The notes under the pieces are model-generated. The model was given only the letters and a program-made list of their open reading frames with translations. It made no database searches and had not been told where the DNA came from. A stretch of DNA of 16,019 bases, from positions 1-16,019 of the forward strand of contig JAFGKQ010000278.1 in assembly GCA_016928495.1 (NCBI GenBank), given 5' to 3'. This document shows positions 8,572 to 16,019 of this stretch, one piece after another. Source of the stretch: Candidatus Fermentibacterales bacterium. GTDB lineage: Bacteria > Fermentibacterota > Fermentibacteria > Fermentibacterales > JAFGKQ01. Numbering within the stretch: the stretch's first letter is position 1; each line of letters opens with the position of its first letter. The position numbers were made by a program, and so were the translations under genes.

Positions 8572-10368
<1,797 letters not shown>

Positions 10369-10960: not shown

Positions 10961-11089
10961 CTCTTCCTCCCATACTAGACGCAGTATGCGCCGGCTACTT
11001 CACGAAAGTCCAGCACCGCGGGATTGACCCGGGGCCCGCTGGATGGCGAGAGCGCGCCACAGTTAGTCTCGGGCCTGGGAGGCATCTCG

Positions 11090-11338
11090 CTAGGCCTTGG
11101 GCCCACTTGGTACCTCAGCATCGGACTCGATGGTGTCCGGTGAACTCCCGAAGAGCAGATCCGGAGGTGTGGCGGTGTCAGCGGAAGGATCCGACCCCCG
11201 GAAGCTGCGCGCCACGAGCACCGCGAACAGCAGCTCTGCGTGTTCGAGGTCCTCTTTTGCAGCGTAGGAGTCCTTGCAGCGCTCTGCGCTGATCCTGATC
11301 CGCCGGCTACCTCGTTGCTTTCCCAGTGTGCTCACCAC
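11090..11338 (-). CDS. Possible small protein, 82 aa
   Basis: Reads in the same direction as the recombinase pair. A GTG start has AAGG four bases upstream. The first half is basic and looks helical (RIRISAERCKDSYAAKEDLE, then HAELLFAVLVARSFRG); the second is acidic and Pro/Ser-rich. No family recognised. Kept because of orientation, ribosome site and plausible composition, but it could be a chance frame. Confidence 0.35.
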   Translation of the reverse strand: MVSTLGKQRGSRRIRISAERCKDSYAAKEDLEHAELLFAVLVARSFRGSDPSADTATPPDLLFGSSPDTIESDAEVPSGPKA

Positions 11339-11680
11339 TGCCTTCGTCTCGTGCTGCGCTGACGCTCCAGTTGCTGCCGCTCCGGACCTTGGACGTCCTG
11401 TTGCCTATCTATCAGGACCTCGGCACTTCCTCCTGGAGATCGTCATCTAGCGCATGACGTGACGAACTCGTAACGCAATCTCATTACTGGCATGTGGTTG
11501 CGGCCAGCCGGCGGTGCGAGCATTGCACGGAGAGGCGGCAAGGCCACTCGAAGCACTGAGAATATGTGCAGGGCGAGAATCTGCACCCGCAGTCGCCTCG
11601 CGGCGCCCTGGCAGACGTATCAGATTGCTTGGCAATCAGATTGGTAGACCAGGGCGTCTAGGAGTCACTGATGAGCGCTC
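11339..11680. other. Non-coding stretch with a nested inverted repeat
   Basis: I see no convincing gene in these 342 bases. CGCCCTGG (11604-11611) pairs with CCAGGGCG (11649-11656), enclosing a second hairpin GATTGC-TTG-GCAATC (11623-11637). The sequence CAGATTG occurs twice within it. A weaker stem GTCCTG/CAGGAC is at 11395-11418. This could be a regulatory or recombination site for the minus-strand genes, or a small structured RNA. Confidence 0.5.
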
Positions 11681-12091
11681 TCACGTCTGGCTACGTAGTC
11701 GGTTGTCGAACATGGAGGTACGCGCCTGCGAGATCGCAATCACAGGAGCCGGAGAAAAGTCAGATGCCGTGATATATAGGTAGTGCAGGTCTTCATGCCG
11801 GACGTTCGGGTCCTGGAGAGGAGGAGCCAGATGACTGCCGGAACAGGGAGACAACAGTTGGACCCAAGACGTGCCGGAGCGATCGGAGCGACCGCCAGTG
11901 GAGACCAAGATGAGAGGGATGTGGGGAGTTGTACAAACGAAGACGATGCTGCGAATGAAACAGATGATGAAGACGCTGAAGCGAGAGATGGAGATGTCAG
12001 TGTCATAGAGAAGGTCGATTGCGTAGTGGAAGCAGGTCGTGATGGGGGATGTGAGGAGCGAGATGGCCACCAGCGGGACTGACGGACGCAC
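11681..12091 (-). CDS. Possible membrane protein, 136 aa
   Basis: A GTG-started frame with two or three hydrophobic stretches (VPLVAISLLTSPITTCFHYA and FSVFIICFIRSIVFVCTT, then PHIPLILVST). Codon third positions in the first 80 codons are mostly C or G (ATC, TTC, GAC, GTC) although the region has lower GC than its surroundings, which favours real coding. No good ribosome site is seen (AAGG ten bases upstream). The last third is less convincing. The start overlaps the stems of the structured region. No family recognised; a decayed gene is also possible. Confidence 0.35.
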   Translation of the reverse strand: MRPSVPLVAISLLTSPITTCFHYAIDLLYDTDISISRFSVFIICFIRSIVFVCTTPHIPLILVSTGGRSDRSGTSWVQLLSPCSGSHLAPPLQDPNVRHEDLHYLYITASDFSPAPVIAISQARTSMFDNRLRSQT

Positions 12092-12538
12092 TCAGGGAAA
12101 GCCTTGGCTCAAGGAGCCGTTGTCCGCCCTGAGAACAACCGTCCGCGGCGATGCTGGGAGCTACCGGACCGTCACACCGGCGCGCCGACCAGAGGAAGAG
12201 GCAGCGATCGGGCCAACCCCGATGGTCATCGCATCCGGCACAGTGGCGAGCATCACCCAACAAACACTATGCGTAACCCCTACCGCGCCGCGCGACCCGA
12301 CGGCGGGAGGGGCAACCCCGTGCCGAGACCCGCGAGGGTCGAGGCGCGGACGGCTCGGGTCGACCGGGAAGGAAAGGCCGAAGCCCCGATGACGAACGGA
12401 GGAGCAGACGCCCGCGCTGAAATGCGCGGGGCACCCCGGCAGGGCGCGAGCGCGCGAGGCGCGCGGCGGATGCGCGGGGGGTGTGCGCCAAGTGTCAGCG
12501 CGGGCGGAGGGACCGATCCCGGTGGTGGTGGCAGTCTG
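12083..12538 (+). ncRNA. Highly structured region upstream of the reverse transcriptase
   Basis: Nested stems at the left edge: CGGAC (12083-12087) with GTCCG (12141-12145), enclosing CTCAGGG (12091-12097) with CCCTGAG (12127-12133) and inside that CCTTG-GCT-CAAGG. Farther on are GGGG-CAA-CCCC (12309-12319), GACCC-GCGA-GGGTC (12327-12340, a GNRA-type loop) and CCCGCGC with GCGCGGG around TGAAAT (12411-12430). The frame open through here (from 12104) has low-complexity Arg/Gly/Pro composition and is probably not protein. Position and stems fit the 5' domains of a group II intron or another RT-linked RNA, but I find no clear GUGYG 5' end or other diagnostic motif. Confidence 0.45.
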
Positions 12539-13792
12539 ATGGAGGACGTGCTCGACAGAGCCAACATGATGGAGGCCGTCAGGAGGGTGGAGCGGAACCG
12601 CGGATGCCCCGGTGTAGACGGGATGACGTGGCGGCAGCTCCGTCCCTACATGGAGGCCCACCTCGACGAGATCGCCGAGCAGCTTCGGAACCGTGCCTAC
12701 CGACCCTCCCGCGTGCGCAGGGTGATGATAGACAAGTACGACGGGGGGAAGCGCCCGCTGGGCATGCCAACGGTCGTCGACAGGACGATACAGCAGGCGC
12801 TCTGCCAGGTCCTTCAGCCACTCTTCGAGCCCGACTTCTCCGGGAGCAGCTACGGATACCGCCCACACCGGAGCGCACACGACGCGCTGCGCGAAGCGCA
12901 GCGCCTGGTGCGCGCGAGGCGCCTGTGGGTGGTGGACGTGGACCTGGAGAGGTTCTTCGATACCGTCGACCACGACGTGCTCATGGCGCGCGTGGCGCGG
13001 CGGGTGGGTGACGGGAGTGTGCTGAAGGCCGTCAGGTCGTTCCTGGAGGCCGGGGTCGAGGGAGAGGGCGAATGGAGGGAGCGCAGCGATGCCGGGATAC
13101 CGCAGGGCGGACCGCTGTCGCCGCTCCTGGCTAACATCATGCTGGACGATCTCGACAGGGAGCTGGAGAGGAGGGGCCATGCGTTCTGCAGGTACGCGGA
13201 CGACGTGGTGATCTTCGTAGGCTCCGAGAGGGCGAGCGAGCGCGTCCTCGGGTCGGTGAGCGCCTTTGTGGAGAGGAGGCTCAAGCTGAAGGTGAACGCC
13301 CGGAAGAGCGGCGTGCGCCGTCCGTGGGAGTGCGTGTACCTCGGCTACACGTGGACGCCGGCGCCTGAGCTCGCGCTCAGGATGTCGGATCGGAGCGTGG
13401 AGAGGCTGAGGGAGAAGCTGGACGCGCTGCGGACGGATGCGACGCGCCGGGGGAGCGACAGGCCGATCGACGAGGCGACGCGAGAGATCCTCGACGGATG
13501 GGGCGCGTACTACGCCCTGGACGAGGACGCGCCGCGCGTCGTGGATGAGCTGGCGCTCGAGTACGGAGCGGCACCCAGGCGCGAGAGCCGTGCGGGAGGC
13601 GCGCGCGGGACGGAGGAGGGCGACGCGCCGGGCGACGAGATGTTGCGCGACGGGTACCTGTACCTCCCCGAGACGCGCGACCCCGAGGAGCGCACCACCC
13701 ACACCGCAGACGACGGCGCGCCCTACGAAGGAGACAACCACGCATCGGACCACCACCCGCCACAACCGCGGCGCGAGCGCGCCGCGCGATGA
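12539..13792 (+). CDS. Group II intron-type reverse transcriptase with truncated maturase domain
   Basis: The 417-aa form starting at MEDVLDR (ATG 12539) matches the N terminus of LtrA-type enzymes. RT motifs are complete: PGVDGMT (24-30), RPLGMPTVVDRTIQQAL (72-88), SYGYRPHRSAHDAL (104-117), catalytic Asp135 in VDVDLERFFD, GIPQGGPLSPLLANI (186-200), YADD (219-222) and the LGYTWTP thumb entry (268-274). Domain X is begun (ILDGWGAYYALDE, 317-329) but the usual basic stretch (WIRRRLR...WKxW) is missing; instead there is an Arg/Gly linker and an acidic tail to residue 417. No HNH endonuclease domain. Such enzymes splice and reverse-transcribe their intron; loss of domain X questions that here. 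The ribosome site is poor (GGAGG 28 bases upstream). Confidence 0.9.
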   Translation: MEDVLDRANMMEAVRRVERNRGCPGVDGMTWRQLRPYMEAHLDEIAEQLRNRAYRPSRVRRVMIDKYDGGKRPLGMPTVVDRTIQQALCQVLQPLFEPDFSGSSYGYRPHRSAHDALREAQRLVRARRLWVVDVDLERFFDTVDHDVLMARVARRVGDGSVLKAVRSFLEAGVEGEGEWRERSDAGIPQGGPLSPLLANIMLDDLDRELERRGHAFCRYADDVVIFVGSERASERVLGSVSAFVERRLKLKVNARKSGVRRPWECVYLGYTWTPAPELALRMSDRSVERLREKLDALRTDATRRGSDRPIDEATREILDGWGAYYALDEDAPRVVDELALEYGAAPRRESRAGGARGTEEGDAPGDEMLRDGYLYLPETRDPEERTTHTADDGAPYEGDNHASDHHPPQPRRERAAR

Positions 13793-13794
13793 AG

Positions 13795-13830
13795 ACGGAC
13801 CGGGCGGGGCATGCACCGCCTCGGGTCCGT
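13795..13830 (+). ncRNA. Hairpin after the RT stop, shaped like group II domain V
   Basis: ACGGACC (13795-13801) pairs with GGTCCGT (13824-13830), and GGCGG (13803-13807) with CCGCC (13816-13820), with one unpaired base on the left and three on the right; 36 bases in all. Domain V is 34 bases with a two-base bulge on the same side. However, there is no GNRA loop (the loop is eight bases) and no clear AGC triad, so it is at best a diverged relic. A second stem, GGGGTC/GACCCC, follows at 13841-13855. Confidence 0.35.
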
Positions 13831-13880
13831 ACGAGAAAAAGGGGTCGATGACCCCGCAGCACGAGGAAGTGAAGGAGACC

Positions 13881-14252
13881 ATGGCTCGAGAGACGGTTCG
13901 TACGCCCGAGAACCAGGCCGCCCTGGTCGAGCACCTGGGCCGTGGGTGCGGCTACAGGATCGCGGCCCGGATTGTCGGCATCGGCGAGAGCACGTTCCGG
14001 CTGTGGAGGGCCGAAGATAGCGATTTTGCCGCTATGTGCAGTCAGGCGATCGCGGACGTCGAGGAGGAGATCGAGTCTGACGCGGTGTGGTGCATCCGCC
14101 AGCGGATCGAGTACGGCGACTGGAGGACTGCCGCGTGGTGGCTCGCCCACCGATGCCCCGAGAAGTACTCGGAGCGGCGGATCGCTACCCCCCGCGCTCC
14201 GACCGATGCCCGCCCGGACCCGGAGAGGTCCGGGAGCCCCTCGGGCGCCTGA
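13881..14252 (+). CDS. Phage small-terminase-like HTH protein, 123 aa
   Basis: Residues about 22-46 form a helix-turn-helix (GCGYRIAARIVGIGESTFRLWRAED), followed by a helical acidic region (ADVEEEIESDA) and the motif YGDWRTAAWWLAHRCPEKYSERR (78-100), the same order as in phage proteins related to terminase small subunits, which recognise phage DNA for packaging. The Pro/Arg-rich tail looks disordered. GAAGGAG ends three bases before the ATG at 13881; an in-frame ATG at 13848 (overlapping a hairpin) is an alternative giving 11 more residues. No large terminase follows, so this may be a prophage remnant or a DNA-binding protein reused with the neighbouring RT. Confidence 0.72.
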   Translation: MARETVRTPENQAALVEHLGRGCGYRIAARIVGIGESTFRLWRAEDSDFAAMCSQAIADVEEEIESDAVWCIRQRIEYGDWRTAAWWLAHRCPEKYSERRIATPRAPTDARPDPERSGSPSGA

Positions 14253-14305: not shown

Positions 14306-14587
14306 CTACGCCGAGGCTGAGGCGCTCTGCTGCGCCGCGGCGGGCGTCGCGCCCTTTCCCTGCGTCCCGTCCCCGAGCTTCGACACCGCCTCCCTGATCG
14401 ACTGCAGCATCAGCAGAGCGAGCCACATCCCGAAGCACAGGACCGTCCCGATCAGCAGGACGAAGAGTTCCGTCTCCTCGAACACCGTGACCCTGTCGAC
14501 GTCGAACTTCGACACAGCCGCTACGAGGAAGTACGCCAGGACCAGCGCCACGACGAACACCAGCACCGCCAGCACACGAGCACCCAT
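14306..14587 (-). CDS. Small two-helix membrane protein, 93 aa
   Basis: Two membrane helices are clear (VLAVLVFVVALVLAYFLVAA, about residues 5-24, and FVLLIGTVLCFGMWLALLML, about 41-60), joined by a short acidic loop (KFDVDRVTVFEETE) and followed by a soluble Gly/Ala/Gln-rich tail. The ATG at 14587 has GGAGGT seven bases upstream, and a fair promoter lies about 45 bases further. It converges on the HTH gene. No family recognised; phages and mobile elements often encode such proteins (holin-like), but that is speculation. Confidence 0.72.
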   Translation of the reverse strand: MGARVLAVLVFVVALVLAYFLVAAVSKFDVDRVTVFEETELFVLLIGTVLCFGMWLALLMLQSIREAVSKLGDGTQGKGATPAAAQQSASASA

Positions 14588-14629
14588 CGTCTCACCTCCA
14601 GGTTGACACTCCGACCCACGGTCCACCTG

Positions 14630-14658
14630 ATCGTAGTGCCCCATCGAGCGAGCAGCAA
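14630..14658 (-). promoter_or_regulatory. Promoter of the two-helix membrane protein gene
   Basis: On the minus strand TTGCTG (14658-14653) and TACGAT (14635-14630) are separated by exactly 17 bases, each matching consensus at four positions. They lie 43 bases before the ATG at 14587. Confidence 0.45.
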
Positions 14659-14945: not shown

Positions 14946-16019
14946 AGGTTCCCCTCCGCCTGCGCGGCAACGCTTGCCCGTGCCGGTGCGGCCGTGGAAC
15001 CCCGCCGGTTCAGCCCCGCTGGCGCGGGGAGCACGTGTTCGATCACCCTTGTGACGCTCTGCGGTACGGTTCACCCCCGCATGCGCGGGGAGCGCTCGAT
15101 GTCACGGGAGATCCGCAGGGATGCGGCTGCGTTCACCCCCGCATGCGCGGGGAGCGCTCGGTGGACGTAGTCGATGCGACCGAGCAGGCCGGTTCACCCC
15201 CGCCTGCGCGGGGAACATCTCGAAGTGCTACCAGCACTGTCAGAACGCGTACGGCTCACCCCCGCCCACGCGGGGACCACCAGCGCCCGACGGCTACGAT
15301 ATCGTCGGGATCCGGTTCACCCCCGCCCACGCGGGGACCACGTATCACGGCCGTGTCTGCCGTTGTAGCTCCGCGGTTCACCCCCGCCCACGCGGGGACC
15401 ACGTTCTGGCCGAACGTCTGGATTCAGGACGACCACGGTTCACCCCCGCCCACGCGGGGACCACTACGTCGACCTGACCGACCGTGGGCAGTACCACGGT
15501 TCACCCCCGCCCACGCGGGGACCACGCGGAACATCAGGAGGCCCCTCCCCTTCCAGACCGGTTCACCCCCGCCTGCGCGGGGAACGCTCAACCGCCGCCC
15601 ACGTCAGGTTAAACTCTTCCGGTTCACCCTCGCCTGCGCGGGGAACGCTACGCCGATCCCGAAGCGCCACCGCTCACCAAACGGTTCACCCCCGCCTGCG
15701 CGGGGAACGCGCCCGCTTAAACGCGGAGTTCGGGCCATTCGACGGTTCACCCCCGCCTGCGCGGGGAACGCTTCCGTGCATGAGTCGCCGAACTCTCCGT
15801 CCTGCGGTTCACCCCCGCCTGCGCGGGGAACGCTTCAAGCCCATCGTTATCAGAAACCCACCGGTCGGTTCACCCCCGCCTGCGCGGGGAACGCTTTCCG
15901 GATACGCATGATCCAGGCTTCGTGTCCGGTTCACCCCCGCCTGCGCGGGGAACGCAACGGCTTCCAGTACAGCCCACCCTCCTGTGCCGGTTCACCCCCG
16001 CCTGCGCGGGGAACGCTCC
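14946..16019 (-). CRISPR. Type I-E CRISPR array, 18 repeats, leader-distal end
   Basis: The 29-base repeat (main form CGGTTCACCCCCGCC then TGCGCGGGGAACGC) recurs every 61-62 bases, leaving 32-33-base spacers. Repeats start at 14946 (decayed), 15006, 15067, 15129, 15190, 15252, 15313, 15374, 15436, 15497, 15559, 15620, 15682, 15743, 15805, 15866, 15927 and 15988. It closely resembles the E. coli I-E repeat; read on the minus strand it ends in GTGAACCG, matching the AUAAACCG crRNA handle, so transcription should run right to left. Decay at the left fits an old trailer end. Leader and cas genes are not in the window. Repeats 15252-15497 share a CCAC loop; 15067 and 15129 share ATGC; the right-hand eight share CTGC. 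Confidence 0.97.

What the first reader, a model, noticed from the sequence alone, without database searches (positions are those of the whole stretch)
12083..14252. Reverse transcriptase with cut-down maturase domain, structured RNA flanks and a phage HTH partner
The RT keeps every catalytic motif but lacks the C-terminal basic part of domain X that group II maturases use to bind intron RNA, replacing it with an acidic tail. It sits between a stem-rich upstream region and a hairpin after the stop, then a small-terminase-like HTH gene within 90 bases. This could be a diverged group II intron, or a domesticated group II-like RT acting with its own RNA, perhaps in defence, on a recombinase-carried element.
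Basis: partly seen in the sequence, partly recalled or inferred. Interest (0 to 1): 0.65.

Follow-up and report, generated by a model that had tools for sequence, protein, structure and literature searches.

The report
Intron-less group II reverse transcriptase
A bacterial copying enzyme that once belonged to a self-splicing jumping intron has lost both the intron RNA and its DNA-binding end but kept a conserved active site, and in two of three related genomes it sits next to a CRISPR immune array, so it has probably been taken over for another job, perhaps defence.

Summary
The RT is real (12539-13792, +). It is a group II intron RT by TIGR04416 (353 bits, cut-off 300) and closest to GsI-IIC RT (E 7e-104). 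It keeps 77 of 81 near-invariant RT residues. The C-terminus carries net charge -11, against +10 to +18 in 23 intact relatives. AlphaFold shows fingers, palm and a thumb with a short third helix, then 69 disordered residues.

No group II RNA was found: Rfam at lax settings and a class-specific domain V model fail, while that model scores 57-91 bits in intact relatives. In a screen of 154 RT ORFs, only three close RTs lack the C-terminal domain: the window's and two from the same order (G011, G041). None of these three has intron RNA.

The HTH is a lone small-terminase-like gene, absent beside every other RT examined, so the RT-RNA-HTH trio is not conserved. The flanking RNA folds are only marginally stronger than shuffles.

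Unexpectedly, the RTs of the window and G011 each point at the trailer end of a type I-E CRISPR array 1.0-1.2 kb away, and G041's lies in a restriction-modification island. One of 80 intact relatives has an array-like repeat nearby. Best reading: a domesticated group IIC RT, probably defence-associated. Function is untested.

The parts
12539..13792 (+). Group IIC-type reverse transcriptase without a D-domain region (most likely start ATG 12539; the open frame runs from further upstream)
   Evidence: TIGR04416 353 bits; RVT_1 2.4e-36; GsI-IIC RT 7e-104; coding signal starts about 12533
13541..13789 (+). Acidic tail replacing most of thumb helix 3 and the DNA-binding domain; predicted disordered from residue 351 of the translated query
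   Evidence: net charge -11 against +10 to +18; pLDDT under 50 at residues 351-419; in-frame coding signal
10961..12538 (+). About 1.6 kb upstream of the RT with no recognised gene and no recognised intron RNA; possible non-coding RNA
   Evidence: no coding signal in the stretches tested between 11300 and 12532; no Rfam family in 11650-12560; z -2.15 for 12083-12532
13796..13831 (+). Hairpin just after the RT stop, at the place where intact relatives carry domain V; not recognisable as domain V
   Evidence: fold z -2.0; domain V model 2.4 bits or less here, no better than elsewhere
13881..14252 (+). Lone small-terminase-like HTH gene; neighbour, not shown to be a partner
   Evidence: phrog_4102 1.4e-12; not found in 98 relatives or beside other RTs
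14306..14644 (-). Small predicted membrane protein between the HTH and the array
   Evidence: ORF and coding signal +0.49 bits/codon
15007..16019 (-). Type I-E-like CRISPR array, trailer end towards the RT, running off the contig
   Evidence: 61-62 bp period, degenerate repeats at the RT side; cas3 and casA (type I-E) on contig C292 of the same genome
8605..10368 (-). Large serine recombinase whose 3' end overlaps tRNA-Met (8572-8648)
   Evidence: Resolvase, Recombinase and zinc-ribbon domains; tRNA

Best explanation
It is a domesticated group IIC intron RT. Shown: the polymerase core and a short thumb are retained under constraint, the intron ribozyme is not detectable, and the basic D domain that group II RTs use to bind target DNA has been replaced by a disordered acidic tail. 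Inferred from this: it can no longer splice or retrohome and works as a free-standing cDNA/DNA-synthesising enzyme. Inferred from neighbourhood: its job is defence-related. In all three genomes of this order that carry such an RT it sits among immune genes (type I-E CRISPR arrays in two, a type II restriction-modification/Vsr island in the third). The most likely mode is cDNA synthesis on a cellular RNA, possibly its own upstream transcript, as in defence-associated RTs, or end-repair synthesis as in G2L4. The template and trigger are unknown.
For: RT family and closest solved structure. 77/81 near-invariant RT residues kept while only 36% of variable columns match the consensus, and a long branch (0.92 changes per column against a median of 0.25) with an open frame: constraint, not decay. 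D-domain region absent in only three close RTs among 154 screened ORFs, all from one order. No intron RNA in the three, while nearly all intact relatives checked carry it. G011 and G041 RTs form a 100/100 clade and the data do not reject the window joining them (p-AU 0.27). Only RVT_1 gene found in its genome. Immune neighbourhoods: window array; G011 array trailer 1.0 kb away, with the same repeat and one spacer seen on contig C11 after a cas3-casA-E operon, a UG9 DRT and PD-Lambda-5 further along; G041 type II REase, MTases, Vsr. One of 80 intact-RT loci has an array-like repeat.
Against: Only three members, each with different flanking genes, so no conserved partner identifies the function. 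Mobile-element cargo accumulates in defence islands by chance. The window's place with the other two is allowed but not supported (it falls outside in the free tree). No upstream RNA similarity among the three. The G011 array end is at a contig edge with a 25-base duplication that looks like an assembly artefact.
Confidence: 0.5

Rival explanations
1. The RT is part of a type I-E CRISPR-Cas locus: it sits beyond the array trailer and supplies cDNA or DNA ends to the system, perhaps replacing or aiding spacer uptake.
For: Two of three such RTs point at the trailer end of a type I-E array at 1.0-1.2 kb, and both genomes hold type I-E cas genes. 1 of 80 intact relatives has an array-like repeat nearby. 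In G011 casE is followed by the array, and no Cas1 is found in a genome that is 95% complete. RTs beside type I-E loci have been reported (PMC5513706).
Against: Known CRISPR RTs act with Cas1, which is absent in G011. G041 has no array within the 18 kb read. Two genes separate RT and array in the window, and the cas genes lie on another contig. The window genome's and G011's CasA proteins hardly align, so the loci are not simple copies of each other.
Confidence: 0.15
2. A dying group II intron: the RNA is already destroyed and the RT is a passenger that has lost its C-terminus.
For: No intron RNA; C-terminus lost; low copy number; sits beside a recombinase on what looks like a worn mobile element. 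One member carries an odd long extension.
Against: After about 0.9 changes per column the frame is open and 77/81 near-invariant residues remain, while variable columns have drifted. Three same-order genomes keep the same unusual form. The new tail has coding signal.
Confidence: 0.17
3. A working group II intron whose RNA has diverged past recognition, with the post-stop hairpins as domains V and VI.
For: A two-part hairpin with a 2-base bulge directly follows the stop, where domain V lies in relatives, followed by a second hairpin.
Against: Domain V model gives 2.4 bits or less there and higher chance scores elsewhere, against 57-91 bits in relatives. No D1-D4 match. The D-domain region is lost. 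The two sister loci lack a recognisable domain V too.
Confidence: 0.05
4. RT, upstream RNA and HTH form one phage-related system carried by the recombinase element.
For: Gene order and spacing (88 nt) in the window.
Against: No HTH relative beside any other RT or in 98 relatives. The other two RTs have different next genes (SLFN/AlbA-type in G041, unassigned in G011). Right end of the element not found.
Confidence: 0.03

Closest known systems
GsI-IIC RT (TGIRT) and class C group II intron RTs
   Same: About 47% identity, same fingers/palm/thumb, YADD, best sequence and structure match
   Different: No intron RNA; third thumb helix shortened; D domain replaced by an acidic disordered tail
G2L4 group II intron-like RT
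   Same: Descends from group II RTs, lacks the D domain and intron RNA; domesticated (PMC12337344)
   Different: G2L4 has YIDD, an RT3a plug, a longer thumb and only about 20-22% identity to this RT in the structural match; this RT has YADD and belongs within the IIC neighbourhood
CRISPR-associated RTs (G2L1/G2L2, RT-Cas1)
   Same: Group II-derived, no ribozyme, some lack a maturase domain, near CRISPR; a few reported beside type I-E (PMC4244168, PMC5513706)
   Different: Not fused or adjacent to Cas1; much weaker match to Cas6-RT-Cas1 (6e-31 against 7e-104)
Defence-associated RTs (DRT/UG classes)
   Same: RT in immune neighbourhoods; stretch upstream without recognised genes
   Different: Not a member by sequence; no DRT model in NCBIfam reaches its cut-off

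Membership tests
Mobile group II intron (class C) | RT of the group II family | tested here: met
   TIGR04416 353 bits, cut-off 300
Mobile group II intron (class C) | Ribozyme RNA with domain V/VI after the ORF and D1-D4 before it | tested here: not met
   Rfam and class-specific model negative; relatives positive
Mobile group II intron (class C) | Basic domain X helix 3 and D domain | tested here: not met
   profile score 0; net charge -11
G2L4 RT | YIDD motif | tested here: not met
   YADD in the window RT
CRISPR-associated RT | Fused or adjacent Cas1 | tested here: not met
   no Cas1 in the window or in the 81%-complete genome; none in G011 at 95%
CRISPR-associated RT | Located at a CRISPR locus | tested here: inconclusive
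   array 1.2 kb away here and 1.0 kb in G011, none in G041
Defence-associated RT (DRT) | Match to a curated DRT family | tested here: not met
   best DRT 58 bits, cut-off 390
Defence-associated RT (DRT) | Protection against phage | not testable with these tools
   needs an experiment
Domesticated group II-like RT (general sense) | Group II-derived RT kept under constraint without ribozyme | tested here: met

The most novel reading that the evidence does not exclude
A group IIC RT was recruited, independently of the known CRISPR-RT clades, to type I-E CRISPR loci lacking Cas1-Cas2, where it acts from the trailer side of the array in a Cas1-independent form of array upkeep or interference.
Probability: 0.08. 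Interest if true: 0.8.

Novelty: new variant of a known kind. Interest (0 to 1): 0.45.

Why it matters
Domesticated group II RTs known so far are mostly far diverged. Here is a lineage close enough to working class C introns (about 40-50% identity) that the changes can be read directly: ribozyme lost, D domain lost, polymerase kept. It offers a test of how a selfish intron enzyme becomes a host or defence enzyme. The repeated placement at type I-E arrays would reopen the question of RT use outside type III CRISPR.

Tried and rejected
Frameshift explanation of the tail: rejected by in-frame coding signal. Post-stop hairpin as domain V: no model support. DGR template/variable repeats: no such repeat pair stood out in the repeat listing; no tandem array beside the RT. 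RT-HTH pairing: no second case. L171, whose match appeared to run into the tail, has a normal D domain. Shared upstream RNA among the three members: no similarity. A short N-terminal resemblance between window and G011 (GAD..AEM.GA, 26/5000 shuffles) is post hoc and in apparently non-coding sequence, so not relied on. Own-genome Cas1 absence is uninformative because the assembly is 81% complete. Array spacers matched nothing held.

Full report
The observation. The window is a whole contig (16,019 bases) of an 81%-complete genome. An open frame holds an RT that exceeds the curated cut-off for group II intron RT/maturase (353 bits, cut-off 300); its closest solved relative is GsI-IIC RT (E 7e-104). 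A codon model trained on other genes of the contig gives coding signal from about 12533 to the stop at 13792, and none in 12104-12388 or 12390-12532. The likely start is therefore ATG 12539 rather than anything near 12083.

The C-terminus. In 23 intact relatives the stretch after GWxxY is 91-131 residues with net charge +10 to +18; in the window it is 93 residues with net charge -11. The tail has in-frame coding signal (+0.37 bits/codon), so it is not a frameshift. AlphaFold (26-sequence alignment, mean pLDDT 82) gives fingers, palm and thumb helices at 286-306, 312-326 and a short third at 333-343, then disorder from 351. Foldseek ranks GsI-IIC RT first; DGR, DRT9 and G2L4 RTs follow at about 20% identity.

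Intron RNA. Rfam finds no group II element in the window at E up to 10, whether searched whole or in short stretches with laxer filters. Full-length relatives with complete loci typically carry D1-D4 elements upstream and a domain V/VI element directly after the stop. A covariance model of domain V/VI made from 12 of the nearest introns scores 57-69 bits in five relatives not used for training but at best 10.9 bits in the window, antisense in the HTH, and 2.4 bits at the post-stop hairpin. That hairpin does lie where domain V should be and has a similar two-part shape with a 2-base bulge, but this is suggestive only.

Relatives. One scan of the genome contigs, searches of up to 385 whole genomes and scans of viral contigs gave 154 RT ORFs (near-identical copies included) that reach the thumb. 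With a profile of the intact C-terminus, only three close RTs (over 440 bits on the RT profile) score nothing: the window's, G041's (L115:8459-9577) and G011's (L114:1181-3367). All three genomes are of one order. G041 and G011 form a 100/100 clade. The window sits on a long branch outside it, but joining the three is not rejected (p-AU 0.27). One loss or two cannot be decided. None of the three has recognisable intron RNA.

Selection. The window RT keeps 77 of 81 near-invariant RT residues yet matches the consensus in only 36% of variable columns, against 48-68% in the intact rows checked. With a branch of 0.92 changes per column and an open frame, this speaks for a working enzyme. It is the only RVT_1 gene found in its genome.

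The HTH partner. The gene at 13881-14252 matches small-terminase PHROGs (1.4e-12). Nothing like it occurs in 98 relatives or among 18,335 ORFs near other RTs; the only phage record hit is 25.6% identical. The next genes in G041 (SLFN/AlbA-type) and G011 (unassigned) differ. The trio is not conserved.

Immune neighbourhood. In the window a type I-E-like array (repeats from 15007, period 61-62) begins 1.2 kb after the RT stop with its degenerate, trailer end towards the RT. In G011 the RT also points at the trailer end of such an array, 1.0 kb away at the contig edge. That piece shares the repeat and one exact spacer with the array on contig C11, which follows cas3-casA-casB-casC-casD-casE directly, with no cas1; no Cas1 is found in that 95%-complete genome. 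The window's genome has type I-E cas3-casA on another contig; CasA hardly aligns with G011's and Cas3 is 36% identical, so the two loci are distinct. G041's RT lies among type II restriction and methylation genes and Vsr. As a control, 1 of 80 intact-RT genome loci has an array-like repeat, though that set contains near-identical copies and was chosen after the fact. G011's contig edge has a 25-base duplication that looks like an assembly artefact.

Interpretation. Shown: group IIC RT core, constraint, loss of the D-domain region, no detectable ribozyme, similar RTs in the same order. Inferred: no splicing or retrohoming; a free-standing polymerase. Inferred more weakly: a defence role, because all three lie among immune genes. 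A direct CRISPR role is possible; RTs beside type I-E systems are on record (PMC5513706), though a later study notes that one RT from a type I genome is not co-located with its cas genes (PMC8934634), and the lack of Cas1 in G011 argues against RNA spacer uptake of the known kind.

Known context. Group II-like RTs without ribozyme are established (G2L groups, CRISPR RTs; PMC4244168, PMC4424553), and degenerate intron proteins are said to be rare in bacteria (PMC4424553). This is a further, apparently unreported variant close to class C introns; the literature held here is incomplete, so priority is not certain.

Noticed in passing
L225:8165-15530 and L114:1-170 (G011): Type I-E operon cas3-casA-E followed directly by the array, with no Cas1 found anywhere in a 95%-complete genome, while the two other genomes of the order with type I-E casC have a Cas1 match on the same contig.
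   Followed up: partly
L226:4504-7780 (G011): A UG9-type defence RT with its associated PolA-like protein lies about 10 kb before the cas3 gene, beside a PD-Lambda-5 gene.
   Followed up: no
window 15256-15560: The array mixes two repeat variants (CCTGCGCGGGGAACGC and CCCACGCGGGGACCAC), the second in a block of five, as if two arrays had been joined.
   Followed up: no
L114:1-25 and 187-211: A 25-base exact duplication at the contig edge joins flank sequence to a truncated CRISPR repeat; probably an assembly artefact.
   Followed up: partly
window 8572-8648: The serine recombinase reading frame ends inside tRNA-Met; no second copy of the tRNA end is found in the window, so the element's right end is unknown.
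   Followed up: partly
L114:1184-1600: The G011 RT frame continues about 200 residues beyond the thumb with a degenerate repeat of about 14 residues; weak coding signal.
   Followed up: partly
L115:6500-8459 and L114:2780-4600: The two other D-less RTs also have about 1.8-2.0 kb upstream without a recognised gene.
   Followed up: partly
window 13841-13855: Hairpin with a T-run on the minus strand, a possible terminator for the opposite-strand gene at 14306-14644; one found, one expected by chance.
   Followed up: no
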